A stretch of DNA of 32,627 nucleotides from a bacterium (GTDB lineage Bacteria > Vulcanimicrobiota > Xenobia > Xenobiales > JADMJV01): positions 1 through 32,627 of the forward strand of contig JASBRJ010000338.1 of assembly GCA_030149525.1 (NCBI GenBank), given 5' to 3'. Position 1 is the first letter of the stretch. Every line of letters starts with the position of its first letter. Position numbers and translations under genes: made by a program. The notes beneath the pieces were generated by a model that saw only the letters and a program-made list of their open reading frames with translations, ran no database searches and was not told where the DNA came from. This document shows, one piece after another, positions 2,641-26,100 of this stretch.

Positions 2641-2849
2641 AATGCGGTCCTTCTTTCAAGTGCATGAGATGGCACAGTAGGCCCACAGTTGCCCAAATTT
2701 TGCGCTTCTGGCCTGAAATAAATCTGAAAACGCAATTTAACGCGAATTTGACACTTCGAGGTTAATGTAATGTTGCAATTTGAACTTAACCGCATCGGGT
2801 TCACGGCCCACAGTGACTCTGCCAACTACGTCCGATGCCAGGGGACCAT

Positions 2850-5057
2850 ATGAATATTCAAAGCTCGAACCCGTTCAACAAGCTCACTTCTCAACCACAA
2901 AAAAAATCGGCGGCATCCTCGCAGGAGCCGCAGGAACAGCTGGATCTTTTCTCTCAGGCTAAGCAAGACTTCGCCGTTTTCAAGCCTTCGGTCGCCCTTA
3001 AGAAATGGGCCGACGAAGCGGAGATTAAAACCATTCCGCAGATGTTCGAAATGGCTATGGCAAAGGATCCCGATGCCGACTTCTTAGGCAAGAAGGTCAA
3101 CGGAAAGTTCGAGTACCTCACCTACGCCCAGGCCAACGAGCAACGCAAAAATTTCGCTTCCGGACTGATCGAACTGGGCCTTTTGACCGGTGAGAGAGTA
3201 GCGACCTACGCGGAAAACTCTCCCGAGTGGATGGTGGCCGATCTCGGCTCCATCACCGCTGGAACCGTTCACGCCCCGCTCTATCGCGATTCCAAAGCCG
3301 ACGCCATCGCTTTCAATCTTCAAAACGCCAAAGCCAAGCTGGTGGTGGTGGATGACGAGAAGCGACTCAAGGAACTCTTAGAGATTGAGAGCGAACTCCC
3401 CGATCTTCATACCATTGTGGTGAAGAACAAAGAGGGAGTGGAAAGTTCCAAGCGCCTGGTGACCTGGGACGAGGTCATGGAGATGGGGGCTGCCAACCGA
3501 GACAAGAACGCTTCCGAGCTTCAGCGTCGGGGCAAAGAGATGAAAGCCACCGATGTCGCCTCTATTGTTTTCACCTCCGGAACCACCGGAACTCCCAAAG
3601 CCGTCCTCCACACTCACGGTTCGTTGCTGAGTTCTGTAGAAGGCGCCCTCAAGATTATCACCAACGATCCCGAAGCGAATCTGAAAGACATCCACCTCAA
3701 AGGTGACAGCGAACTGGCACTCCTGCCTCTCGGACACATCTTCGAACGGATTGTGGCCTACTCTTTGACCGCCACCGGAGCCTCACTGGCCTATCCCAAC
3801 GGACACAAAGAGTTTCTCGACGACGTCAAGCAAACCCAGCCCACAGTCCTTGCGGCCGTGCCCAAGCTTTACAACACCATTATGGAAAAGGCCAGGGACA
3901 AAGCTCACGCCACTCCTCTGGTTTCTAAACCCGCCGGATACCTCGGGGGCGCCCTTGTCGGAGCTGCCGGAGGTGCCTTGGCCGCCGGTGGTGCCGGACT
4001 GGTGAGTTCCGTCCTCAACGGGGGAGACATTCTGGGTAACTTTATGAGCGGTCTCGGACCGGTTGGTGCGGCTGTGGGTGGAGCCGTCGGTCTTGGCCTG
4101 GGAATTTACGCCGCAAGCAAGACTCAAGGCGACATGTTCGACTGGGCTCTCAAAACCAGCGAGCAATACTACACGGAGCGAGATTCCGGTAGCGTTTCCA
4201 CAACGACCGGTCTCAAGCACGGTCTGGCCAAGAAATTGGTCTATAAGAACAGCAAGAAAGCTATGGAAAAGGTTCTGGGCAAGAATGTCCGGGCTATGAT
4301 TTCCGGTGGCGCGCCGCTACCGGACCAAACGTCCGTCTTTTTCTGGGACAACGGAATTCAGCTGAGCAACGGTTACGGAACGTCGGAAATGGGCGTCACC
4401 AATGTCAACCCTCTGAATAAGCAGAAGCTCGGTACTGTCGGGCCCGCTGTTCCCGGAGTGGAGATGGAGATTACCCCCGATCCGGATTTGGGTCAGGACC
4501 AGGGTGAGATTCGCTATCGCGGTCCGAACCTGATGCTCGGCTATCTCAACGATCCGGAGAAGACCGCTCAGGCGTTCGACAACACCGGCGCATACCTCAC
4601 CGGGGATATCGGGAAGACCGACAAAGACGGACATCTTCTCATCACAGGACGTTTGAAAAACTACATCGCGCTGGCCAGTGGAAAGAAAATCGCCTCCGAG
4701 CCGTTGGAGCAGATGTTGGAGCAAAGCCCTTTTATCGAGCAGTCTCTCGTGGTCGGCGAATCAAGACCGTATGTCGGTGCTCTCATCGTTCCGAATTTCG
4801 AGAAATTGGGCCAATGGGCCGCCGCCAACGGACATTCCTCCGAACCTGAGTCCATGGCTAAGAATCCTGCTGTCAAAGATTTCCTGGCTGGAGAGACCAA
4901 GCGCCTCACTGCCGAGAACGACCGTCACGAACAGATTTGGAAGATCGGGGTTGTGGGGCGAGAACTCACCGAGGAAGAACTCGCCAAAGGTGAGCCCAAG
5001 CGACCCGTGATGCTCAAGAACTTTGCCGACCTGGTGGATTCCATCTACGAGAAATAA
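2850..5057 (+). CDS. Long-chain acyl-CoA synthetase (AMP-binding) with glycine-zipper insert
   Basis: A 735-residue ANL-superfamily ligase that would activate fatty acids with ATP to acyl-AMP and then the thioester. Seen in order: P-loop TSGTTGTPK (242-250), LPLGHIFER (292-300), SGGAPL (485-490), NGYGTSEMG (507-515), YLTGDIG (582-588) and the hinge-lysine region ITGRLKNYIALASGKKI (598-614). This matches the FadD15/FAA class. Between the helix VPKLYNTIMEKA and the segment MFDWALK lies an extra Gly/Ala-rich hydrophobic block (about 360-423). I chose the ATG at 2850 because AGGGGA sits just upstream; an in-frame ATG at 2835 lacks one. It is divergent from the acyltransferase, and together they resemble a split version of the Aas ligase/acyltransferase fusion. 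PilZ follows after 75 bp. Confidence 0.9.
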   Translation: MNIQSSNPFNKLTSQPQKKSAASSQEPQEQLDLFSQAKQDFAVFKPSVALKKWADEAEIKTIPQMFEMAMAKDPDADFLGKKVNGKFEYLTYAQANEQRKNFASGLIELGLLTGERVATYAENSPEWMVADLGSITAGTVHAPLYRDSKADAIAFNLQNAKAKLVVVDDEKRLKELLEIESELPDLHTIVVKNKEGVESSKRLVTWDEVMEMGAANRDKNASELQRRGKEMKATDVASIVFTSGTTGTPKAVLHTHGSLLSSVEGALKIITNDPEANLKDIHLKGDSELALLPLGHIFERIVAYSLTATGASLAYPNGHKEFLDDVKQTQPTVLAAVPKLYNTIMEKARDKAHATPLVSKPAGYLGGALVGAAGGALAAGGAGLVSSVLNGGDILGNFMSGLGPVGAAVGGAVGLGLGIYAASKTQGDMFDWALKTSEQYYTERDSGSVSTTTGLKHGLAKKLVYKNSKKAMEKVLGKNVRAMISGGAPLPDQTSVFFWDNGIQLSNGYGTSEMGVTNVNPLNKQKLGTVGPAVPGVEMEITPDPDLGQDQGEIRYRGPNLMLGYLNDPEKTAQAFDNTGAYLTGDIGKTDKDGHLLITGRLKNYIALASGKKIASEPLEQMLEQSPFIEQSLVVGESRPYVGALIVPNFEKLGQWAAANGHSSEPESMAKNPAVKDFLAGETKRLTAENDRHEQIWKIGVVGRELTEEELAKGEPKRPVMLKNFADLVDSIYEK
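3927..4118 (+). other. Glycine-zipper hydrophobic insert within the acyl-CoA synthetase
   Basis: Encodes about residues 360-423, counted from the ATG at 2850. Two hydrophobic segments (GGALVGAAGGALAAGGAGLV, and GPVGAAVGGAVGLGLGIYAA) are separated by a short polar linker with NGGD. The flanking sequence is ordinary acyl-CoA synthetase on both sides. The reading frame is uninterrupted, so this is a genuine in-frame insert and not a frameshift artefact. Confidence 0.75.
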
Positions 5058-12434: not shown

Positions 12435-13613
12435 GTGTCGCAAGAGCCGCTCCGCGTACTCACAGTTTTTGGTACTCGGCCTGAAGCTATCAAAATGGCG
12501 CCTGTAGTCAAGGCGCTGCAAGCTCACCCCATGACCGATGTCGAAGTCGTCGTCACCGGTCAGCATCGGGAGATCCTCGATCAGGTCTTGGAGTTGTTTG
12601 AGATCGATCCCGACGATGATCTCAATATCATGAAGCCTCGGCAGACTCTCTACGGTCTCACGGCCAACGCTCTCAACGGGATGGCTCCTGTTTTGGAGAA
12701 GTCCCGTGCCGAGGTGACTCTGGTGCAGGGGGACACGACAACGGCTTTTGCCGCCGGCCTGGCTAGCTTCTATGCCAAGATACCGGTGGGTCATATCGAG
12801 GCCGGCTTGCGTACCGAAGATGTCTACGAGCCGTTTCCTGAAGAGATGAATCGTCGTCTTCTTTCAACGCTCTGTCACTTTCATTTTCCCCCCACTCAAG
12901 GATCGCTTGAGAACTGTCTGGCTTGCGGGATTCCTAGGGAAAGAATCTATGTCACCGGTAACACTGTGACCGATGCTCTCTTGCATGTGGCTAACGGGCT
13001 GCCGTCGGGTCTTCCTGAAGGGCTTGTGGATTTGCCTGAAGGGGCTCGCTACATCCTGGTGGAGACCCATCGTCGAGAGAATCTCGGCGAGCCCATGCGG
13101 GATGTCTGTATGGCTCTCAAGGATCTCGTGGCGAAGCATTCCGATCTCCATATCGTTTTCAGTGTTCATCCAAATCCGGCGGTGAGAGATGTTGTCTTTC
13201 CTGAGCTGAAGGGTCGTGAGCGGGTTCATCTTTTGGAGCCTGTGGATTATCCCATCTTGATTCGGTTGATTCGCGAGTGTGCTCTCATTCTGACCGACAG
13301 TGGTGGGATTCAGGAGGAGGCGCCCAGTTTAGGGAAGCCTGTTCTCGTCTTGAGAAGGCAGACCGAGCGTCCTGAGGGCGTGGATGCCGGTGTGGCCGAG
13401 TTGATGGGGACGGATCGGGCAAAAATTGTGGAGCGAGCTTCTCAGCTATGGACCGATGCGGCTGCCTATACGCGAATGAGTCAGATAGCCTCTCCCTATG
13501 GGGATGGTGAGGCGGCCAGAAGGACGGTTGAGGCGCTTCTTTATGAATTGCGCGGAATCGGCCCTAGACCCACGGAGTTTCTGCCCGCTGCGGTAGGTGT
13601 CGGTGGAGCCTGA
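12435..13613 (+). CDS. wecB: UDP-N-acetylglucosamine 2-epimerase (non-hydrolysing)
   Basis: A 392-residue cytosolic enzyme interconverting UDP-GlcNAc and UDP-ManNAc. Motifs: FGTRPEAIKMAPV (12-24), TGQHREIL, VQGDTTTA (97-104), GHIEAGLRT (119-127), PFPEEMNRRL, VETHRREN with the catalytic-region His (H212), and DSGGIQEEAPSLGKPVLVLR followed by TERPEG. AAGGAGG precedes the GTG start. It follows the wecA-like gene, which also uses UDP-GlcNAc, so the two may supply a ManNAc-containing surface glycan. Its end overlaps atpZ by 17 bp, tying it to the ATP synthase genes. Confidence 0.95.
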   Translation: MSQEPLRVLTVFGTRPEAIKMAPVVKALQAHPMTDVEVVVTGQHREILDQVLELFEIDPDDDLNIMKPRQTLYGLTANALNGMAPVLEKSRAEVTLVQGDTTTAFAAGLASFYAKIPVGHIEAGLRTEDVYEPFPEEMNRRLLSTLCHFHFPPTQGSLENCLACGIPRERIYVTGNTVTDALLHVANGLPSGLPEGLVDLPEGARYILVETHRRENLGEPMRDVCMALKDLVAKHSDLHIVFSVHPNPAVRDVVFPELKGRERVHLLEPVDYPILIRLIRECALILTDSGGIQEEAPSLGKPVLVLRRQTERPEGVDAGVAELMGTDRAKIVERASQLWTDAAAYTRMSQIASPYGDGEAARRTVEALLYELRGIGPRPTEFLPAAVGVGGA

Positions 13614-13935
13614 AGAGCCGGAAAAGGTTGTTTCTGAAGAGGAAGCTCAGCTGGCACAAAGTGAGGCTGAGCTTCAGGCTTTAGAGGAGCGGTTGGATAA
13701 GATCAAAGGGCCTGTCTCCAAAGGGGATAAGCAGTTTGCTCGAGGCCTGGCTCTAGTGGCTAGTTTCGGCTTCGTCCTAGCCGGTTGTCTGGTGGGCGGA
13801 TTGATGATAGGGGACTACCTGGTGGCTCAGAGCGGCCATAAGATTTTTCGGTTGGTCGGGCTCTTTCTAGGGTTGTTTACGGCCCTCTTCGCTGGGGTAA
13901 AGCTCATGAAGCCCTTGATGAGGTCGGATAACTAA
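13597..13935 (+). CDS. atpZ: AtpZ-like F1Fo ATPase accessory membrane protein
   Basis: A 112-residue protein. A charged heptad-like coiled coil (about residues 13-37) is followed by two membrane segments (about 49-72 and 83-103), the usual AtpZ layout. GTG starts exist at 13597 and 13603. The former overlaps wecB by 17 bp. Small AtpZ proteins precede atpI in many atp operons and are thought to help assembly or ion supply. The precise role is not established here. Confidence 0.75.
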   Translation: MSVEPEEPEKVVSEEEAQLAQSEAELQALEERLDKIKGPVSKGDKQFARGLALVASFGFVLAGCLVGGLMIGDYLVAQSGHKIFRLVGLFLGLFTALFAGVKLMKPLMRSDN

Positions 13936-13936
13936 A

Positions 13937-14218
13937 GTGACTGCTCTGATGCCTATAATGTCCTTTCTGTCTGGTTACGCTCTCGGTGTTATCAACTACC
14001 GAATGTTTGTCAGGATGATTGAGCAAGTTGCTTCCGAGCCCGTAGAAAAAGGCGTTCGTAACAAAGTTGTGAAGGCCGGGATTTTTCGTCATCTTTTTGT
14101 TTTTCTTGCAGGAATTTATCTAGTTCGGGGAGCAGGCTTCGCACCGTTTGGCCTGTGTGGCGGACTCCTGTTGGCGACTTACATGTGTCGGTATCGATCA
14201 TGGCGCGCACAGCAGTAG
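13937..14218 (+). CDS. atpI: ATP synthase protein I (AtpI-like)
   Basis: A 93-residue hydrophobic protein with about three membrane segments, including SGYALGVINYRMF and FVFLAGIYLVRGAG. It lies between atpZ and atpB, the usual position of atpI, whose product assists c-ring assembly. The GTG start follows the atpZ stop by 1 bp; an in-frame ATG at 13949 is an alternative. Assignment rests on position and membrane pattern more than on strict motifs. Confidence 0.75.
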   Translation: MTALMPIMSFLSGYALGVINYRMFVRMIEQVASEPVEKGVRNKVVKAGIFRHLFVFLAGIYLVRGAGFAPFGLCGGLLLATYMCRYRSWRAQQ

Positions 14219-14239: not shown

Positions 14240-15271
14240 ATGAATTTTGCGACAATGTTATTGGCAGCGGCCGGTTCTCACGGTAGCTTTAGCTTCCATC
14301 ACCAGTTGATCGTAGCGTCAACTGTGATTGTAGTGACCGTGCTGATTCTGCTTGGTGTACTGGCTCGGGGACAGATCGGAATCGTTCCTCGAGGCTTTGG
14401 GGCCGCCTTTGAGCACGTATTTGACTGGATCGACGGATTGAGTCAGGACATGATAGGGCCCGGATCGCGTCAGTATGTTCCGATCCTGATGTCATTTTTT
14501 CTGTTTATCCTGGCCTCCAACTGGAGCGGTCTGTTGCCGCTTCCGGTTTTCAATGTTGATTCGGCCTACGCGTCTCAATTGAGTGCGCATTCTAATGAGG
14601 GGCACGCTCAGCCTGACCCCGCCACGGTGATTGAGGGTGAGACTCCCGTTGAGTCGGAAGATCACCACCTTCACTTCGCCTACGAGGCTCCCACGGTTTC
14701 ATTTAACACCACCTTGGCTCTCGCTGTGATCTCCTTCTTGGCTTTCAATTTTTATGGAATCAAGAAGAATGTGATGCCTTCTGCCGGAGGGCATCATCAC
14801 GACCACGAGGGAGATGAGCATCACGCTCACTCTTCGGGCGGCATCGGCGGAATCTTCACCTGGTTGGGCCACTTTATTCAGCCGACTCCCATGTTGTGGA
14901 ACTCCCTTGAAGGGGTAGCGCGCTACGCTCTCGTCCCCTTGCTTCTGGTGTTGTTTCTCTGTCTGAATATCGTGGAAGAGGTTGCACGGATCTTGAGTCT
15001 CTCGATTCGACTTTTCGGCAACATCTCGGGTGAGCACTCTGTTAAGGTGAACCTCTTAGGGGTTCTAGGGAAATTTTTGAATCAGTCACTTTCGGCTCTC
15101 AAAGTGGGAGGAATTGGAAGCGGCGTGTTTCATTTCGGATTGGCCGGCTTGATTTGGGGAGCATCGGTCTTCGCAACCCTTTTGGGTGCGTTGGCCGGCT
15201 TCATTCAAGCGATGGTCTTCATGATCTTAAGTTTGGTGTACATAGCCCACGCAGTGGCTGATGAACATTAA
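14240..15271 (+). CDS. atpB: ATP synthase Fo subunit a, with two extra hydrophilic inserts
   Basis: The proton-channel stator of Fo. At 343 residues it is much longer than the usual 220-280. The essential Arg is present in LSLSIRLFGN (R257), followed by the expected C-terminal helices (FATLLGALAGFIQAMVFMIL). Two inserts explain the length. One is about 40 residues, acidic and His-containing (about 107-150), after LLPLPVFN. The other is a His cluster with seven His in 13 residues (185-197, HHHDHEGDEHHAH) after FYGIKKNVMPS. The rest of the fold aligns normally (PTVSFNTTLALAV). It follows atpI by 21 bp. Confidence 0.93.
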   Translation: MNFATMLLAAAGSHGSFSFHHQLIVASTVIVVTVLILLGVLARGQIGIVPRGFGAAFEHVFDWIDGLSQDMIGPGSRQYVPILMSFFLFILASNWSGLLPLPVFNVDSAYASQLSAHSNEGHAQPDPATVIEGETPVESEDHHLHFAYEAPTVSFNTTLALAVISFLAFNFYGIKKNVMPSAGGHHHDHEGDEHHAHSSGGIGGIFTWLGHFIQPTPMLWNSLEGVARYALVPLLLVLFLCLNIVEEVARILSLSIRLFGNISGEHSVKVNLLGVLGKFLNQSLSALKVGGIGSGVFHFGLAGLIWGASVFATLLGALAGFIQAMVFMILSLVYIAHAVADEH

Positions 15272-15280
15272 GAAAAAAAA

Positions 15281-15296
15281 GAAGCCGCTCGGCTTC
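15281..15296 (+). promoter_or_regulatory. Intercistronic hairpin before atpE
   Basis: GAAGCC-GCTC-GGCTTC forms a 6-bp stem with a tetraloop. It is preceded by an A-rich run and followed by an AU-rich stretch and a strong AAAGGAGG ribosome site at about 15317-15324. It is not a plus-strand terminator because no U run follows. Many organisms boost translation of the multi-copy c subunit through this leader; that role is inferred here. Confidence 0.5.
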
Positions 15297-15330
15297 ACAA
15301 TTTATTGATTGGACTCTAAAGGAGGAAACG

Positions 15331-15654
15331 ATGAAAAGTCTCTATGGACATTTCTCGAAGGTTTGTTGGATTTTGTTGGCGCTGGTTGTTCCCGCGCTGG
15401 CGCAAGAAGGTGGCGCAGCAATGAGTGCTGACGGCATGATCGCTATCGGTGCCGGACTGGCTATCAGTGTTGGTACCATCGGCCCTGGTCTGGGTCTTGG
15501 TAACGGTGTAGGTAAAGCGATGGAAGCTATCGGTCGCAACCCCGAAGCTGAACCCAAAATCAAGAACAACATGATTGTTGGTCTGGCGTTTATTGAGGCT
15601 CTCTCCATCTACGCTCTGGTAATCGCTTTCATTCTGAGCGGAAATATCGGATAG
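15331..15654 (+). CDS. atpE: ATP synthase Fo subunit c with N-terminal signal-like extension
   Basis: The rotor-ring proteolipid. The core (residues about 34-105) is a normal helical hairpin: AIGAGLAISVGTIGPGLGLG, the RNP loop (69-71), and AFIEALSIYALVIAFIL with the ion-binding Glu (E89). Na-type ligands are missing: Leu56 stands where Na-rings have Gln, and Ala90 follows the Glu where Ser is needed. Proton use is therefore predicted. Residues 1-25 look like a cleavable signal peptide (positive start, hydrophobic core, ALA-Q), which is extra. An excellent AAAGGAGG site supports the upstream ATG; an internal ATG at 15421 (M31) is the only rival. Confidence 0.95.
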   Translation: MKSLYGHFSKVCWILLALVVPALAQEGGAAMSADGMIAIGAGLAISVGTIGPGLGLGNGVGKAMEAIGRNPEAEPKIKNNMIVGLAFIEALSIYALVIAFILSGNIG

Positions 15655-15681
15655 TTTCAGAGTCTGATTTAGGAGTCAAGT

Positions 15682-16185
15682 ATGGAAGTCGTCGGTAAAG
15701 TTCTCGCAAGCCTTGACTTTGATACCACGACCTTTATCTGCCAAGCGTTTCTGTTTTTCGTCCTTCACTTTTCGCTCAATGCGTTGGTGTATCAGCCGAT
15801 TATGCAGATTCGCGATAGTCGCGACAAGAAGATTGCCACCAGTCTGGCTGCAGCGGAAGCTGCCAAGGACGAGGCGCGGCGTCTCAAGGAAGACTATGAG
15901 CAGAAGGTCCGTGGTGCCAGGGCTGATGGACAATTGGCGCTCCAGAAAGCTACCGAATCTGCCGAAGCCGAGCGCAAGACTCGCGTAGAGAAAGCGCGTC
16001 AGGAAGCAGCGGACATATTGCAAGCGGCTCGCAAAGAGGCCGATGCCATGTTGGCGAAGGCTGAAGGGTCTCTCGAGACTCAGTCTGAGCAAGTCGCGAA
16101 AGCGATTGTGTCCAAGCTACTGACCGCTTCTCTGGGCGAGGAAGATAGCAAGGCTATTGTTGCAACGTTGGGAGGTGCTTCGTGA
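15682..16185 (+). CDS. atpF': ATP synthase Fo subunit b' (first b-type stator)
   Basis: A 167-residue peripheral-stalk subunit. One N-terminal membrane helix (about 15-37) is followed by a long charged coiled coil rich in Ala, Glu, Lys and Arg. It is the first of two unequal b-type genes, the arrangement seen where the stalk is a b/b' heterodimer. TTAGGAG precedes the ATG. Its stop overlaps the GTG of the next gene (GTGA). Confidence 0.9.
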   Translation: MEVVGKVLASLDFDTTTFICQAFLFFVLHFSLNALVYQPIMQIRDSRDKKIATSLAAAEAAKDEARRLKEDYEQKVRGARADGQLALQKATESAEAERKTRVEKARQEAADILQAARKEADAMLAKAEGSLETQSEQVAKAIVSKLLTASLGEEDSKAIVATLGGAS

Positions 16186-16706
16186 GTCTAAGTTTGTTCA
16201 ATCATCTTGGCATGACCGGAGCTCAGGTCTTCGATTGGCTAGTCTCCATCGCGAACTTCGGCATTATGTTTATCCTCTTTCGTCTGGTTGTGATCATCCC
16301 GATGCAAGAGGCCGTGAAGCTCAGAGAACAGAGGGTCGCTCTCAGGCTCAAGGAGATCGATAAGATCGCCAAGGATGCCCAGGAGACGAAAGAGACTTTT
16401 CAAGCTCGCTTCGGACAGGTCGATACCGTCCTTGCCGAGGTGAAAGAGGCTTCCGACCGCTCGCTTGCACAAGTGAAGCAGCGGCTGGAAGAGCGCGCCG
16501 AGGCTGAAGAGAAGTACATCTTGGAAAAAGCCAAGGCGGAAGCTGAAGCGCTCAAGCGTGAAGCGGAAGTCCGTGTTCGTTCTCAGGTGGCCGATAAGGC
16601 TGTGGCGCGGGCGGAAGTTCTTTTGAATTTCGCACTCGACGCCGGTTCTCAGAATAAGATTCTCACCGCTTCGGTGAAGAAGATGGGAGAGCTAAGTGCT
16701 TCTTAG
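16182..16706 (+). CDS. atpF: ATP synthase Fo subunit b (second b-type stator)
   Basis: A 174-residue subunit with an N-terminal membrane helix (about 17-40, ending VVIIPMQEAV) and a long coiled coil to the C-terminus. It starts with GTG overlapping the b' stop by 4 bp, which couples the two. It overlaps atpH by 11 bp. Which of the two genes is b and which is b' is set by position only. Confidence 0.9.
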   Translation: MSLSLFNHLGMTGAQVFDWLVSIANFGIMFILFRLVVIIPMQEAVKLREQRVALRLKEIDKIAKDAQETKETFQARFGQVDTVLAEVKEASDRSLAQVKQRLEERAEAEEKYILEKAKAEAEALKREAEVRVRSQVADKAVARAEVLLNFALDAGSQNKILTASVKKMGELSAS

Positions 16707-17238
16707 AGCTGTTGCGGTAAGATATGCTGACGCCCTGATGTCGTTGGCCGACAAAGCTGGTGGTTTGGAGAAGTTGGACGCAGATCTGGGGTTAGTCGCG
16801 TCCACCATCGCCGAGCACGAAGGCCTTCGGTCGGCTCTCGAGTCTCCTACTGTGCCGAGCACCAAAAAGCACGCTGTCTTGAAAGCGGTCTTTGAGGGTA
16901 AGGTCTCATCTACCATAGTGAACTTCTTGTATGTTCTGGTGGATAAGAAGCGGGAAGAGTATCTGGGCAAGATTTTGGAAGTCTTTCAGGAGCGTCTGCG
17001 CGAGGCGCGGGGCGAGGTTGCCTGTCACGTTGTGTCGGCCAAACCCCTCACCGCCGCTATTCGCAAGGATTTAGAAAAGAACCTCAAGTCGTTCTCTGGG
17101 CGTGCCGTCCAGTTGACGGAAGAGGTCCAGCCCGAGTTGCTGGCCGGTATGGTCGTGACTGTGGGTGACAGAGTAATAGATACAAGTTTTCGGAATCAGC
17201 TGCGCGAGATCGGGGAACGTCTCTCGCGGGTTGATTGA
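16696..17238 (+). CDS. atpH: ATP synthase F1 subunit delta
   Basis: A 180-residue OSCP/delta subunit that joins the b stalk to the top of F1. The N-terminus has the typical AVAVRYADALMSLADKAG helix. The middle has NFLYVLVDKKREEYLGKILEVF. The C-terminal domain ends in ELLAGMVVTVGDRVIDTSFRNQL, a diagnostic delta motif. The GTG start lies inside the atpF end, with GGGAGA upstream. Confidence 0.95.
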   Translation: MLLRAVAVRYADALMSLADKAGGLEKLDADLGLVASTIAEHEGLRSALESPTVPSTKKHAVLKAVFEGKVSSTIVNFLYVLVDKKREEYLGKILEVFQERLREARGEVACHVVSAKPLTAAIRKDLEKNLKSFSGRAVQLTEEVQPELLAGMVVTVGDRVIDTSFRNQLREIGERLSRVD

Positions 17239-17256
17239 ATATGATGGAGGATTAGA

Positions 17257-18783
17257 ATGGCGATTCGAGCCGAAGAGATCAGTGATATTCTCGTAAAAGA
17301 GATCGAGGGATATGATCCCGAGGTCAAGGATCTCCCGTACGGGACGGTCGTGCAGGTGGGGGACAATATTGCAACTGTCTACGGTCTGCGCGATGCCCGA
17401 GCCGGTGAGTTGCTCTCCTTCGCTGGTGGCGAACTCGGTATCGCCATGAACCTCGAAGAAGACACAATTGGTGCCGTTATCATGGGTGACGACACCGAGA
17501 TTAAAGAGGGTGACCGAGTAGAGAGCACCGGCAAAATTGCCGAGGTTCCTGTAGGTGAAGCCCTCCTGGGGCGCGTTATCGACGCCCTTGGTAACCCCAT
17601 CGACGGCCGGGGTCCTATTGAGACCACCGAAACCCGTACGATTGAGTTTACCGCTCCCACTGTTCCTGAAAGGGAGAGTGTACACGAGCCTCTGCAAACC
17701 GGTATTAAAGCGGTAGATGCTCTGATTCCCATCGGTCGCGGTCAGCGTGAGTTGATCATCGGTGACCGCCAAACTGGTAAAACTGCTATCGCGGTCGACG
17801 CCATTGTGAATCAGCGCGATACGGACTGCTACTGCGTTTACGTGGCTATCGGTCAAAAGACCAACAACGTAGCGGCTGTTGTGGACAACTTGAGAGAAGC
17901 GGGCGCCCTGGACGGCAAAACCGTAATCGTTTCGGCTAGTGCCAACGAGTCTCCCTCGATGCTCTATCTCGCCCCCTACACAGGTTGCGCTATCGCCGAG
18001 CAGTTAATGTACGAAGGTAAGCACGTCCTCATCGTTTATGACGACCTTACCAAGCACGCTAACGCGTACCGCGAGATTTCCCTCTTGCTGCGTCGTCCTC
18101 CGGGACGGGAAGCGTATCCTGGTGACGTATTCTTCTTGCACTCACGTCTTCTGGAAAGAGCAGCTAAGCTGCACAAGAGCCTGGGCGGTGGTTCTATGAC
18201 CGCACTGCCCATCATTGAGACTCAACTCGGCGACGTATCGGCTTACATTCCCACTAACGTAATTTCCATTACCGACGGTCAGATCTTCCTCGACAACGAC
18301 TTGTTCTATCAAGGTATCCGACCGGCTGTGGATGTTGGTATCTCGGTATCTCGCGTGGGTGGTTCGGCTCAGATCAAAGCTATGAAAAAAGTAGCCGGTC
18401 CTCTGCGTCTCGACCTTGCTCAATATCGTGCGCTGGCTGCTTACGCTAAGCTGTCCGCCGACGAACTCGATAAGCAGTCCCGAGAGCAGCTGGCTCGCGG
18501 TGCTCGTTTGACCGAGATTCTCAAGCAGAAGCAGTTCGACGTTATGCCGGTTGAGCTACAGGTGTGTATCCTGTACGCTGCAACTCAGGGTCACCTCGAC
18601 GACATTGAAGTGGAAGACATCAAAGAGTTTGAGAACGGCTTCCACGACTACGTTAAGGCCAATCACGCCGACATCCACAAAGAGCTGGTTGAGAAGAAAT
18701 CTCTCTCTGATGAGTTGAACGCCAAGTTGGACGCAGCGATTAAGTCGTACAAAGAGGAGTTTCTCGCCGGCCGCAACGCTTAG
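17257..18783 (+). CDS. atpA: ATP synthase F1 subunit alpha
   Basis: A 508-residue non-catalytic nucleotide-binding subunit of full normal length. Walker A is GDRQTGKT (169-176). The [11 protein letters not shown] segment carries the arginine finger that completes the beta catalytic site. GGAGG precedes the ATG. The sequence is highly conserved, with no odd substitutions noticed. Codon use looks more biased toward a few codons than in the flanking accessory genes, as expected for a highly expressed gene. Confidence 0.98.
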
Positions 18784-18796
18784 GAGTAGTTAAACG

Positions 18797-19651
18797 ATGT
18801 CGAGTCTTAAAGACATAAAGAACCGCATCAAATCTGTTCGAAACATTCAGCAGATCACCAAGGCCATGAAAATGGTTGCGGCGTCGCGGATTCGTAAGGC
18901 TGAGGAACAGCTGAAGGCGGCTCGGCCTTATGCGGAAAAGCTGAAAGAGGTCGTGTTCGATCTGACGGCCGGGTTGGATGAAGTTCTTCATCCTCTCATG
19001 GAGGTTCGCAAGGTCGAGAACATCGCCGTGATCGTGGTCTCCTCTGACAAGGGTCTCTGTGGTGCGTACAACAACAACCTGCTGCGAATGGCCTGGAAAG
19101 AACTCAGCGAGAATCCTCCGGATAAACTGGTCGCCATCGGCGCCAAGGCTAACAAATACCTTGCGCGTCGTGGTGTGAAGCCCGATGAGAGTCGTATTAA
19201 CTGGGAGCCCGAATTCGAGCTCGCGCAGGAGTACGCTACACTGGTGGCTGATTGGTTTGTCTCCGGTGAGGTTGATCAAGTCGTGGTGTACTACACCCAG
19301 GCAGTGACCTCCATGACTCAAGAGCCTGTTCGTGAGGTCGTCCTTCCGGTGAAGAAGGAAGGTCTGGATCAGGAGACCGGAGTTATTCCTTATGACTTCG
19401 AGCCCTCCGCCGACGCGGCTCTCGATGTGCTGCTGCCGCGCTATGTGAGAAACGTTATCTTCAAGATTCTTATGGAATCCAAAGTGGCGGAGCTTGCAGC
19501 GAGGCTCAAGGCGATGAGCAATGCGACCGATAACGCCGATAAGCTGGCAGATGAGCTGACATTGCAGTTCTTCCGTCTGCGTCAGGAAGCGATTACCACC
19601 GAGATCCTCGAGATCTGTAGTGGTGCAGAAGCTCTGGCTCAATCGAGCTAG
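18797..19651 (+). CDS. atpG: ATP synthase F1 subunit gamma
   Basis: A 284-residue central-shaft subunit. The N-terminal coil (IKNRIKSVRNIQQITKAMKM) and C-terminal coil (RLKAMSNATDNADKLADEL, ending ITTEILEICSGAEAL) form the rotor shaft. VVSSDKGLCGAYNNNL is the conserved globular motif. No chloroplast-type redox Cys pair insert is seen. It follows atpA by 13 bp. Confidence 0.97.
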   Translation: MSSLKDIKNRIKSVRNIQQITKAMKMVAASRIRKAEEQLKAARPYAEKLKEVVFDLTAGLDEVLHPLMEVRKVENIAVIVVSSDKGLCGAYNNNLLRMAWKELSENPPDKLVAIGAKANKYLARRGVKPDESRINWEPEFELAQEYATLVADWFVSGEVDQVVVYYTQAVTSMTQEPVREVVLPVKKEGLDQETGVIPYDFEPSADAALDVLLPRYVRNVIFKILMESKVAELAARLKAMSNATDNADKLADELTLQFFRLRQEAITTEILEICSGAEALAQSS

Positions 19652-19670
19652 GGCGAAATAGAAACGAAGA

Positions 19671-19686
19671 ACCAGCCTCGGCTGGT
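19671..19686 (+). promoter_or_regulatory. Intercistronic hairpin between atpG and atpD
   Basis: ACCAGCC-TC-GGCTGGT is a perfect 7-bp inverted repeat in the 95-bp atpG-atpD gap, the largest gap within the F1 genes. No U tract follows, so it is unlikely to be a terminator. It may stabilise or process the mRNA for beta. The core GCC.CTCGGC resembles the hairpin before atpE. Confidence 0.45.
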
Positions 19687-19710
19687 AAGAGAAATAATGA
19701 ATTTGCATAA

Positions 19711-21198
<1,488 letters not shown>

Positions 21199-21220
21199 CG
21201 ACAGGAAGGCATAGGTCCCA

Positions 21221-21628
21221 GTGTATACCAAGGACTTTACAGTAGAGATCGTCACCCCGGTCCGAACCAAATTCGAGGGTACCTGTCAGGAAATTATCCT
21301 GCCCGGTATCCAAGGAGAAATGGCTGTTTTGGGCGGCCACGCTCCGCTGCTTACCATGCTGAGTCCCGGTATCACCGTGACCAAGCAGGGCGACAAAGAG
21401 CAGGTCCTGACCACAGGGGAAGGCTTTGCAACTATCGCCGAAAATCGCGTGGTTTGTCTGGTGGATTTCGCCCACGAGATCAGTGAGCTGGACTTCGACG
21501 CCCTTCGCGCAGAGCGCGACGGGCTTCAGTCCGAGCTCAACGCCGACCCGGGCAACGCACATATTCGAAATAAGAAGCAGCAAGTTGAGGCCAAACTCAG
21601 AGCTGAGAATTACGGCAAGAACAGCTAG
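21221..21628 (+). CDS. atpC: ATP synthase F1 subunit epsilon
   Basis: A 135-residue subunit linking gamma to the c-ring and often restraining ATP hydrolysis. The N-terminal beta-sandwich shows VEIVTPVRTKFEG, LPGIQGEMAVLGGHAPLL and ENRVVCLVDFAHEI. The C-terminal part (about 90-135) is the expected helical hairpin. The start is GTG. The stop codon is directly followed by the murA ATG with no gap. Confidence 0.94.
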   Translation: MYTKDFTVEIVTPVRTKFEGTCQEIILPGIQGEMAVLGGHAPLLTMLSPGITVTKQGDKEQVLTTGEGFATIAENRVVCLVDFAHEISELDFDALRAERDGLQSELNADPGNAHIRNKKQQVEAKLRAENYGKNS

Positions 21629-23103: not shown

Positions 23104-26100
23104 ATGAAGTTTCGTCAACTGGCCATAAAGCTCTTCAAGCGGGGAGTACCGATACTGGCTCTGCTGCTACTGGTAGGGTTCGTGCTGTTTCTCATGTTTT
23201 TCGACAGCATCGGCCAGACAGTTCTTGACCGAGTCGAACAGAGCATCCCCGGGAACCTTACGGTCAAGCGTTTTTCCCCCTCCTTGGGCGGTCTTACCCT
23301 CAACGGAGTGAAGTGGAATCTCGATAGCAAGGAGCCGATTCTGGAAGCCTCCGAGATCGACGTGAATCTTCGTTTCGGACAGCTTCTGAAGGGGCGTTGG
23401 AATCACGCCGTGTCCGAGGTCGTCCTTCACAAGCCTGGTCTGCGCGTGGTTGTCGACCCTAACGGCAATCTCAATCTCTTAGACTTGCTCAATGTGAGTT
23501 CTGATGAGCCGGCTATCGATCTCAGCGAGATCCGTATGTCCATTCGCCTGGAAGATGGATGGATTCTTTACAACGATCGACGCGATGCCGGATTTCTGTA
23601 TGAACTGTCCGATTGGAACGGGCTCTTTGCCTTTGAGGACGGCAAGCATTTGGATTATCAAATGTCCGGTGCCCCCAATAGGAACGAGGACAGTCGCCTG
23701 TCTCTCTCCGGTCGCGTTGCATTGAACGAACCGAGAGCTCTCGTGACTCTTGGTTTGACCGACCTCCAACTCGAGCCATTCGCCGGATTTCCGGGGTTTG
23801 GACCTGGATTGACCCTAGTCAGGGGAAAAGTGAACGGATCGGTGCGAGCTTCAGGAGAGGGAGACAACTGGAACGACTTGTTGGCGAATCTGTTCCTAGT
23901 GGGTCATCTCGATCTCGATAACGGCGCTTTCCGTTCCCCTGAAATGCCGGCCGCTCTGGAAAAGATGGAAGGTCGCGTCGAGCTTCTCGGCTCCCAATTA
24001 GATGTCAACAACTTTCAAGGCTCGGTGCTTGAGATCCCGTTTCAGGCCGGCGGTGAAGGCGAGCTTGGGTCAGGCGGACAGTTGGAAGGCTGGGTTCAGA
24101 CACCTCGCTTCCCGCTTGCGAGACTCAACCCGCTCCTAAAAGAACCTCTTCCCATTAAGGGGGAAGCCGAAGCTCGAGTGAGAGCCAGAGCCAACCAAGG
24201 TAATATTCTTCTCCAGGGTACCCTGAAAGGCTACGACCTTCAGGCGGAAGGAGAGAGGATCGCCCATGCAGAGGCGGACTTTCTCAAGACCGAAGACCTC
24301 ATCCATCTCTCTCGACTCGAGGCAGAAACTTCAGCAGGACTTGTTTCCGGAGAAGGCTGGGTTTTTCTTGGCGAAGAGCCTCGCGTGCTTATCGACCTGG
24401 AAGGGCAGGACGCCGATCCGGAAGTGGTTCTTCCGGGCCTGGCCCAAAAAGCCGACTTCAAGGTGAAGGTGATGGGTTCGCCTCTCACTCCGCTCATCTT
24501 TGGCGGAGGAGAACTCAAGGGACTTGGTTCCTGGGCCCAGGGCATGAACGACGCCATCGGGCAGTTTGTCTACTCCGGTGACAACCTGCTTCTCTATGAT
24601 GGGAAAGCCTCCAAAGGGCAAAGTGCCGTCAACCTCAAGATGGGCATTTATGATCTCCAAGAGCAACTGTTTTCAGGAATCTTGAGCGCCACCGGATTTC
24701 GTTTGGAAGATCTGCCCGGAGTGAAAATCGACGGCGTCAGCGGGCAGTTCACAGGATCGGCTGTGGTGGATGCAGACCTCTCCGGCGAGACTCCAAAGGT
24801 GGAAGCCCAGGCTTTCCTCGAGCGCGGAGATTTTCGCTCGGGTGGACTGGAGGCGACCGATACCTCGGGTGAGTTCTTTTTTGATGGAAACCAGGTGGTT
24901 GTTCCACGTCTAGAAACAAGTGTTCTGGGCTCCAACTTCGGTCTTGCAGGGGCCTATGACCTGAGAAATGACGCGGTCCAAGTCGTGGGGCAAGGCAAGA
25001 ATGTCGATCTCTCCACAGTGGGTCTTTCCGGTCAGCGTGCCGATCTTGCGGTCACAGCCCAGGGTACACTTGGAGGACGAATCGGGGTCTACGGCCTAGC
25101 CGAATCCCAGTTGGGTAGAGTCGCTCTATCCGGCTTTCAGCGAGAAAACGGTGAGGTCGCGGGAGTGGCATGGGTTCAGGGAGAAAAAGATCAGGTCGCG
25201 GTCAATACGACTGTTGTCGCTAACGGGAGTTTGGACAACCTTTCTCTCGAGTACAACGGTCATCTTGATGGAGAGGGCCTGGCCAATCTCGGTCCCGTGT
25301 CTCTGTTCGGGTCGGCTCTTCTCAAAGACAGCACCCTCACTATTCAACCCACCATTTTTTCAGGTCTCGAAGCCCCCTCCGATGCTCGACTCTACCCCAT
25401 GATGACTTACCGAGGCGTAGCTTATACCTTCTTCGGTCCTCTGATGTCCGGGCCGCTGGAGAAGGTGGTTTTAGAGGAATCTCCTTTTCCCCGAGCACGG
25501 AACTTCATACTTGCCGGAGACGCCAATCTGGCGAGTGGAGAACTCGACCTGGGATTTCAGATGCACGCGGCGGGATTGGAAGAAGTTCCGCTTCCGGCGA
25601 TCGCAGAGAAACTTCCCTTCGAGCTTCTGGGCGGTTTTGGGAATTTCCAGGGGCGCGTAGTAGGCAATCTTAGCGATCCGATTGTCCAGGCGAACTTCCT
25701 CTTTCCCTGGTTGATGCTGGGCGATGAGACGGATCAGCGTCTGGCTCTGGGGGCTCGAGGTCGCTTGGAGTTTGCCAAAAACATGCTGAAGGTTCGGAAT
25801 GTAGCGGTCTCTCAAGCGTCCTTCGATTCAAGGCTTTCCGAGCGACGCACTCAGCGCGGGTCTCGGGATGGTTTGATTCGTTTGCGCGGCTTTTTGGCTG
25901 CCGACGAAAGCTTCGACCTGCGGGTGCGCACCGAAGGATTCTCTCCTGACTTTTTTGCTTTCTTTGCCCCTCCGGCCATTCGAGACTATGTACCTAGCGG
26001 TCGACTCTCCACCAAGAACCTTCACCTCTGGGGCACTCTCGATTCTCCATCCGCCTCCGGCCGGGTGGAGCTTCGGCGGGGCGGGATCATGTTAGCCGGA

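What the first reader, a model, noticed from the sequence alone, without database searches (positions are those of the whole stretch)
14780..14850. Histidine cluster and acidic insert in ATP synthase subunit a
Seen: seven His in 13 residues (185-197) plus a separate insert of about 40 residues with more His, in a protein far longer than usual. Both sit in loops between membrane helices, and the essential Arg is intact. Inference: a metal-binding or proton-buffering loop at the channel entrance, or a contact with the extra stalk parts.
Basis: partly seen in the sequence, partly recalled or inferred. Interest (0 to 1): 0.55.

Follow-up and report, generated by a model that had tools for sequence, protein, structure and literature searches.

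The report
Histidine-rich cytoplasmic loop in ATP synthase
The membrane subunit that lets protons through this bacterium's ATP-making enzyme carries an extra, histidine-packed loop that, by homology, lies on the inner side next to where protons leave; the loop recurs in related families, so it probably helps to accept protons or hold metal there, but this is untested.

Summary
AtpB (14240-15271, 343 aa) has seven His in residues 185-197 and a Lys/Arg-free 50-residue stretch (101-150; 5 His, 9 Asp/Glu); the essential Arg is R257. By alignment to solved homologues the two sit on opposite sides: the His cluster in the cytoplasmic helix 4-5 loop (proton exit), the acidic stretch in the periplasmic helix 3-4 loop, whose variability is already published. 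So 'channel entrance' is wrong for the His cluster. A long 4-5 loop occurs in all 17 class reads, in 2 of 53 from elsewhere in the phylum, and in 0 of 128 from two other phyla; four or more His there in 9 of 17 against 0 of 182. Sequence and length turn over, even within a genus, but His richness persists in three of four class families and is lost in the fourth (f3). The insert lies just before the segment with two ligands of the metal cap of the Pseudomonas aeruginosa exit channel, which meet the C-terminal tail; in two other phyla that tail is sometimes or often His-rich. Most likely: a flexible imidazole brush taking up protons at the exit mouth; metal binding is the main rival. A new variant of a known subunit; function untested.

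The parts
14240..15271 (+). atpB, F-type ATP synthase subunit a, 343 aa
   Evidence: PF00119 133.5 bits, above cut-off; only AtpB found in the genome; inside an F1Fo operon
14759..14848 (+). cytoplasmic helix 4-5 loop, residues 174-203, extended to 30 residues (4 in E. coli between the same columns)
   Evidence: alignments; begins with K175 K176 (positive-inside)
14792..14830 (+). His cluster, residues 185-197 (7 His in 13)
14540..14689 (+). periplasmic helix 3-4 loop, residues 101-150: acidic insert with 5 His, 9 D/E, 0 K/R
   Evidence: loop placed in the periplasm by homology with Bacillus PS3
14870..14872 (+). His211, conserved His next to or in the column of Pseudomonas aeruginosa metal ligand Glu182
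   Evidence: H in 52 of 53 reads of own phylum outside the class, 12 of 17 in the class; P. aeruginosa segment
15008..15010 (+). essential Arg257 (E. coli Arg210)
15260..15268 (+). C-terminal Asp341-Glu342-His343; the tail has 9 residues after Tyr334, as in P. aeruginosa (8 in E. coli), which puts Asp341 and His343 at the places of metal ligands Asp287 and His289
   Evidence: for the window and E. coli; P. aeruginosa tail (to residue 286) and the residues named in PMC12796488
15331..15654 (+). atpE, subunit c
   Evidence: PF00137
15682..16185 (+). first subunit b (b'-like), peripheral stalk
   Evidence: PF00430; best NCBIfam match subunit B', below cut-off
16182..16706 (+). second subunit b, peripheral stalk
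   Evidence: PF00430

Best explanation
The His cluster is a natural insertion in the cytoplasmic loop between helices 4 and 5 of subunit a, at the mouth of the proton exit half-channel. It most likely works as a flexible, disordered imidazole brush: with pKa values near cytoplasmic pH, a handful of His can take protons as they leave (or supply them in hydrolysis) and pass them on to bulk buffer, together with the conserved His211 and the C-terminal Asp/Glu-His. Because a buffer needs enough imidazoles rather than fixed positions, the loop can change length and order while its His richness is kept. Shown here: the cluster, its site, its recurrence in the class, and its absence elsewhere in the sample. 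From the literature: the equivalent segment and the C-terminal tail meet at the exit channel in P. aeruginosa. Inferred: topology by homology, disorder, and the proton role.
For: Site: the insert follows the end of helix 4 (...YGIKK) and precedes GIGG...HFxxP. In P. aeruginosa the same segment (KGIGGFLGELTLHP) holds Glu182 and His186, which with the C-terminal Asp287 and His289 cap the cytoplasmic channel. In PS3, His231 of a 237-residue chain is named as close to the same half-channel. Recurrence: a loop of 20 or more residues in 17 of 17 class reads and 2 of 182 others; 4 or more His in 9 of 17 and 0 of 182. With His-rich meaning 7 or more, the label needs 2 changes on the tree (8 of 22 rows; bootstrap 2-3; shuffled mean 6.8; 0 of 500 shuffles as low). 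Turnover with retention: rows L014, L015 and L019 differ by about 0.03-0.05 changes per column in the core, yet their loops are 38, 40 and 46 long with 12, 15 and 17 His. Six of the nine His-rich loops were tested against the window genome's hydrophilic background of 2.6% His: binomial P 6e-5 to 1e-15. His at the same mouth recurs by another route: the C-terminal tail has 4 or more His in 43 of 76 reads of one other phylum and 5 of 52 of another. As cited by PMC12796488 (passage; the paper itself is not held), a His-rich C-terminal extension from an ice worm raised ATP synthesis when moved to the E. coli enzyme.
Against: Eight of 17 class reads (all of family f3) have 0-3 His in the loop and evidently make do. 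No single His of the cluster is conserved. The one structure prediction failed (mean pLDDT 43.5), so geometry and distance to the channel were not computed. At three times the background His content the probabilities are weak (0.007-0.04 for five of the six loops tested, 3e-8 for L019), so relaxed low-complexity drift is not fully excluded. Five class genomes also hold a second ATPase operon whose subunit a lacks the insert, so the cell does not need it for every Fo. The P. aeruginosa authors themselves say their mutant effects may reflect disturbed proton translocation rather than ion binding. Proton buffering predicts nothing that metal binding excludes.
Confidence: 0.38

Rival explanations
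1. Metal-binding cap or sensor: the His cluster binds Zn2+ (or Ni, Cu, Co) at the exit mouth, ordering or throttling the channel as the metal cap does in P. aeruginosa, or tuning the enzyme to free metal.
For: P. aeruginosa precedent in the same loop segment and C-terminal tail, with 25-45% less synthesis on losing a ligand. Counted from the conserved Tyr, the window tail (DEH) is as long as that of P. aeruginosa and has its Asp and His ligands in place; 36 of 53 own-phylum reads outside the class have the same tail length, 34 of these with E/D at the Asp place and 33 ending in His. His211 lies at or next to the place of Glu182. HHHDH and HHAH patterns are good ligands (general knowledge).
Against: His186 is Gln214 here, and Glu182 is His211 or Gly210. 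That tail pattern is common without any His-rich loop, and PMC12796488 reports no like site in the other species it compared. His number (7-17) and spacing vary too much for one defined site. I made no search for metal genes.
Confidence: 0.3
2. Neutral low-complexity expansion: once the class had a long tolerant loop, His/Asp codons expanded by slippage, and the content is drift without function.
For: Length and sequence vary quickly within genus g2. His codons (CAY) and Asp codons (GAY) differ by one base. Family f3 lost the His.
Against: His-rich in f1 (two genera), f2 and f4 although the loops no longer align between families; no tandem repeat in the window gene (other genes not tested); CAC and CAT mixed (77 and 27 of 104); no other ORF of the 299 sampled from the window's genome has such a cluster.
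Confidence: 0.2
3. Docking loop: the insert contacts the peripheral stalk (b, b'), F1 or an accessory protein.
For: The loop faces the cytoplasm, and many class members have long loops on both sides of the membrane. In PS3 the other loop (helix 3-4) does contact subunit b.
Against: No conserved sequence in the cluster that could form an interface; partners were not tested by co-variation.
Confidence: 0.1

Closest known systems
[quoted passage not shown] PMC12796488)
   Same: Same loop segment, and a C-terminal tail of the same length with Asp and His at two of the four ligand places; His chemistry at the exit mouth.
   Different: P. aeruginosa has no insert and four defined ligands. Here 7 His lie in a long insert; the other two ligand places are His211 or Gly210 (Glu182) and Gln214 (His186), and Glu342 stands at the Asn288 place.
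Ice worm (Mesenchytraeus solifugus) ATP6 with His-rich C-terminal extension (Dunkley et al. 2025; seen only as cited in PMC12796488)
   Same: His-rich addition to subunit a; the extension raised ATP synthesis in the E. coli enzyme.
   Different: At the C-terminus, in a mitochondrial protein; here in the helix 4-5 loop of a bacterial protein.
His-rich C-terminal tails of AtpB in two other phyla (this survey: phyla of G149 and G150)
   Same: His/Asp/Glu-rich segment on the cytoplasmic end of subunit a, e.g. AHEGGHDGHELEASGHH.
   Different: The tail is lengthened, and the helix 4-5 loop is short (3-5 residues) in all 128 reads.
Solved ATP synthase subunit a 9itj_T (Chloroflexus aurantiacus; organism name recalled, the PDB table gives only the molecule)
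   Same: Insert of similar length in the periplasmic helix 3-4 loop, with acidic residues and some His, aligned with window residues 103-147.
   Different: It also carries Lys; the aligned parts show no His-rich helix 4-5 loop (the alignment does not cover the whole of that loop).
Bacillus PS3 ATP synthase (6n2d_a; PMC6377231)
   Same: Fold, half-channels, variable periplasmic helix 3-4 loop.
   Different: No His-rich cytoplasmic insert is described in the passages read.

Membership tests
F-type ATP synthase subunit a (PF00119) | Pfam family above curated cut-off | tested here: met
   133.5 bits against 33.9; the match falls in two stretches
F-type ATP synthase subunit a (PF00119) | essential Arg and the N and Q of the a/c interface | tested here: met
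   R257, N261, Q323 present
F-type ATP synthase subunit a (PF00119) | F1Fo operon context | tested here: met
   a-c-b'-b-delta-alpha-gamma-beta-epsilon order, 14240-21628 (a, c, b', b, epsilon by Pfam; delta, alpha, gamma and beta recognised from their sequences, no family search run on them)
F-type ATP synthase subunit a (PF00119) | helix topology with the 4-5 loop in the cytoplasm | tested here: inconclusive
   by homology and K/R distribution only; predicted model of low confidence
NCBIfam equivalogs for F0F1 subunit A (TIGR01131 and others) | score above curated cut-off | tested here: not met
   TIGR01131 96.9 against 102.6 bits; all 13 families matched are below their cut-offs. The inserts probably lower the scores; the protein diverges from the curated models
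P. aeruginosa-type metal-capped exit channel | ligands Glu182, His186, Asp287, His289 plus inserted Asn288 | tested here: not met
   His211 or Gly210, Gln214, Asp341, His343; Glu342 at the Asn288 place: two of four ligands the same
P. aeruginosa-type metal-capped exit channel | bound metal | not testable with these tools
   needs purified enzyme
N-ATPase (alternate F1Fo) subunit a, TIGR03306 | family score above cut-off | tested here: not met
   52.6 bits against 302.1

The most novel reading that the evidence does not exclude
Bacterial ATP synthases have repeatedly turned the proton exit mouth of subunit a into a His-rich proton-accepting or metal-responsive brush, by lengthening either the C-terminal tail (two other phyla here, and the ice worm) or, in this class, the helix 4-5 loop; the brush raises the rate or shifts the pH range of proton release and so of ATP synthesis.
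Probability: 0.25. Interest if true: 0.7.

Novelty: new variant of a known kind. Interest (0 to 1): 0.45.

Why it matters
Whether proton release from the exit half-channel can limit ATP synthase, and whether metals act there, is open; recent work on P. aeruginosa and the ice worm points to His at this mouth. A natural series with 0 to 17 His at one site in one class, some genomes with an uninserted second enzyme as control, makes the question testable by loop grafts and deletions in a laboratory enzyme.

Tried and rejected
Structure prediction: AlphaFold2 on the window protein with the two relatives allowed by the tool (A3) gave mean pLDDT 43.5. Helix borders agree with expectation, but I drew nothing else from it and ran no fold search. 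A scan of viral contigs to enlarge the permitted alignment found no relative. The genome-contig scan found only two distant relatives.

Channel entrance for the His cluster: rejected by topology. An assembly artefact: rejected, the long loop recurs in 16 other class genomes and is His-rich in 8 of them. A genome-wide taste for His: rejected on a 4% sample. I first took the Asp of the PTRD motif before helix 4 for E. coli Asp119; the numbering puts Asp119 in NLMDLLP, so I dropped any claim that the class lost a known half-channel residue. Exact equivalence of His211 with P. aeruginosa Glu182: two MAFFT alignments place His211 in the column of the E. coli Glu, whereas counting back from the conserved Pro puts Gly210 there; I claim only neighbourhood.

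Rows set aside: the 18th class genome, G016 (61% complete), had no match. L006 (a run of N; my reading ran on into AtpE, so its C-tail is void) and L013 (contig end) were dropped from the C-terminal count, and L013 from the tree. The class figures in the raw output ('ending in H: 12', 'H in last 3: 13', of 17) must be read as 12 of 15; the class rows for columns 323, 342 and 343 include the L006 artefact. Four of 80 genomes of the G150 phylum (G216, G246, G258, G277) and 71 of the 124 own-phylum genomes outside the class with a match were not read; in the own phylum I took mostly one to a few per genus, not at random. In the G149 phylum all 51 genomes with a match (of 79 searched) were read; G307 gave two reads.

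Literature: searches (15 of 16 hits listed; 10 of 17 listed; 8 of 8; no hit) showed, by title and start of abstract, no paper on a His-rich helix 4-5 loop in subunit a; only open-licence papers are held, so this is no proof of absence. Searches were for structures and half-channel work; 42 for the ice worm.

Full report
What was checked. The + strand ORF 14240-15271 is AtpB, subunit a of an F-type ATP synthase, in an operon with two small upstream membrane proteins, then a, c, b', b, delta, alpha, gamma, beta, epsilon (delta, alpha, gamma and beta were recognised from their sequences, without a family search). It is the only AtpB found in its 8.27 Mb genome. It passes the Pfam cut-off but falls below every NCBIfam subunit-a cut-off, the nearest being TIGR01131 at 96.9 against 102.6 bits. 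Seven of residues 185-197 are His, exactly as reported, and the acidic stretch is residues 101-150, with 5 His, 9 Asp/Glu and no Lys/Arg. Shuffling the protein reaches 7 His in 13 in 7 of 20,000 trials. In 334 kb of the same genome (the window plus 20 stretches), 1 of the other 298 crude ORFs reaches 6 and none reaches 7; 0 of 726 hydrophilic 30-residue windows outside AtpB, taken every 10 residues, hold 7 His, with 2.6% His on average.

Which side. Aligned with E. coli and other relatives, the His cluster lies after helix 4, whose end carries K175 K176, and before helix 5; the acidic stretch lies between helices 3 and 4. The Bacillus PS3 paper (PMC6377231; passages) calls the helix 3-4 loop periplasmic, larger in bacteria and chloroplasts, variable in sequence, unlikely to serve core proton translocation, and in contact with subunit b. 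The P. aeruginosa paper (PMC12796488; passages and part 1 of section 8) has Glu182 and His186 bind a metal, inferred to be zinc, at the cytoplasmic channel together with C-terminal Asp287 and His289. The P. aeruginosa chain reads SIKVKGIGGFLGELTLHP there; the window reads GIKK-insert-GIGGIFTWLGHFIQP. So the His cluster is cytoplasmic, at the exit, inserted about eight residues before the place of Glu182, and the acidic insert is periplasmic. The charge pattern of the window protein agrees. The predicted model was too poor to add to this.

How it is distributed. I read 199 AtpB sequences: 17 of the class (18 genomes searched; G016 had no match), 53 of the own phylum outside the class (of 124 genomes with a match), 52 of the phylum of a Limisphaerales genome (G149; all 51 genomes with a match, one giving two reads), 76 of the phylum of an Ignavibacteriae genome (G150; of 80), and E. 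coli. Between the same two conserved Gly columns the loop is 21-51 residues in all 17 class reads, 4 in 51 of the 53 others of the phylum (27 in L011 and 21 in L018), and 3-5 in all the rest. Four or more His: 9 of 17 in the class, 0 of 182 elsewhere. The nine are both genera of family f1 (window 7 His; g2 7, 10, 12, 15, 17), f2 (8) and f4 (8, 9). The eight f3 reads have 0-3 His. On a tree of the core without the loops, the label 'seven or more His' needs two changes, for which one gain and one loss suffice (bootstrap 2-3; shuffled mean 6.8, 0 of 500 as low). That tree does not resolve the order of families in the class, and midpoint rooting is for drawing only.

What the variation says. In genus g2 the cores of L014, L015 and L019 differ by about 0.03-0.05 changes per column, while the loops differ in length (38, 40, 46) and His number (12, 15, 17). 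Across families no position of the cluster is conserved. Against the 2.6% background of the window's genome, six of the nine His-rich loops were tested and have binomial probability 1e-15 to 6e-5; at three times that background the values are 0.007-0.04 except for L019 (3e-8), so the case for selection rests on recurrence in several lineages. His codons are mixed, 77 CAC and 27 CAT over the class, and the window gene has no tandem repeat.

The neighbourhood. His211 (in HFxxP) is present in 52 of 53 own-phylum reads outside the class, 64 of 76 and 21 of 52 in the other two phyla, and 12 of 17 in the class. The five without it are genus g2 (Arg/Lys). They also have Pro for the exit-side Arg250, whose P. 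aeruginosa counterpart by E. coli numbering, Lys214, is called a proton-shuttling residue in PMC12796488; yet four of the five have more loop His than any other read. The protein ends in His in 12 of the 15 class reads with a readable end; the three that do not (L009, L010, L017) are f3 reads with 0-2 loop His. The window tail has nine residues after Tyr334, as in P. aeruginosa and unlike E. coli (eight), so that Asp341 and His343 stand at the places of ligands Asp287 and His289; 36 of 53 own-phylum reads outside the class share that length (P. aeruginosa tail and the paper). Elsewhere the C-terminal tail itself can be His-rich: 4 or more His in 43 of 76 and 5 of 52 reads of the two other phyla, 1 of 53 in the own phylum outside the class, and none in the class (counted from the column of window Leu330). 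That pattern suggests that His is added at one mouth by two routes, but the class is a single clade, so it counts once. Five class genomes carry a second ATPase operon (in L245, the one read in full, beta comes first, as I recall for N-ATPases; no family search was run); the subunit a in all five has a short loop there and no C-terminal His.

How it most likely works. I favour a proton-accepting brush: several imidazoles beside the exit cavity raise the chance that a proton leaving the c-ring is taken up and handed to bulk buffer. This needs number, not order, which fits the turnover. The P. aeruginosa mutants (25-45% less synthesis, little effect on hydrolysis, though the authors allow that this may not be due to ion binding) and the cited ice-worm graft show that changes at this mouth can alter synthesis. 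A metal cap is the main rival; two of the four P. aeruginosa ligand places are the same here, but that tail pattern is common in the phylum without the loop. Drift is the null. No experiment on this protein exists to my knowledge, and I could not compute distances.

Verdict. The acidic insert is a known kind of variable periplasmic loop, with one of similar length in a solved structure (9itj_T).

Noticed in passing
[quoted passage not shown]
   Followed up: partly
L012, L014, L015, L016, L019: Genus g2 has lost His211, Glu247 and Arg250 of the exit side and has AKH in place of GEH after the essential Arg, while four of its five loops are the most His-rich of all.
   Followed up: partly
window 14699-14701 (S154) and 14684-14686 (E149): The Asp before helix 4 (PTRD motif, 52 of 53 in the phylum outside the class) is Ser/Asn/Gln in all 17 class reads, and an acidic residue five positions upstream (E/D149) is present in 16 of 17. 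In the other two phyla that Asp is 29 of 52 and 9 of 76, so it is not universal.
   Followed up: no
L243, L244, L245, L246, L247: Five class genomes carry a second ATPase operon (L245, the one read in full, is beta-first with a small protein, a, c, b); the subunit a of all five lacks both inserts.
   Followed up: partly
window 15331-15654: Subunit c begins with a signal-peptide-like extension (MKSLYGHFSKVCWILLALVVPALAQEGG) before the usual hairpin (judged by eye).
   Followed up: no
window 13597-13935 and 13937-14218: Two small membrane proteins precede atpB; the first has only weak Pfam matches below cut-off, ATPase_gene1 among them, the second matches no Pfam or NCBIfam family. Possibly AtpZ and AtpI.
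   Followed up: no
window 23104-28920: A 1938-aa ORF with a weak C-terminal TamB match (42.7 bits, cut-off 825).
   Followed up: no
window 2835-5057: A 740-aa acyl-CoA ligase-like ORF whose matches fall mostly in two separate stretches (about 60-360 and 434-739), suggesting an insert between them.
   Followed up: no
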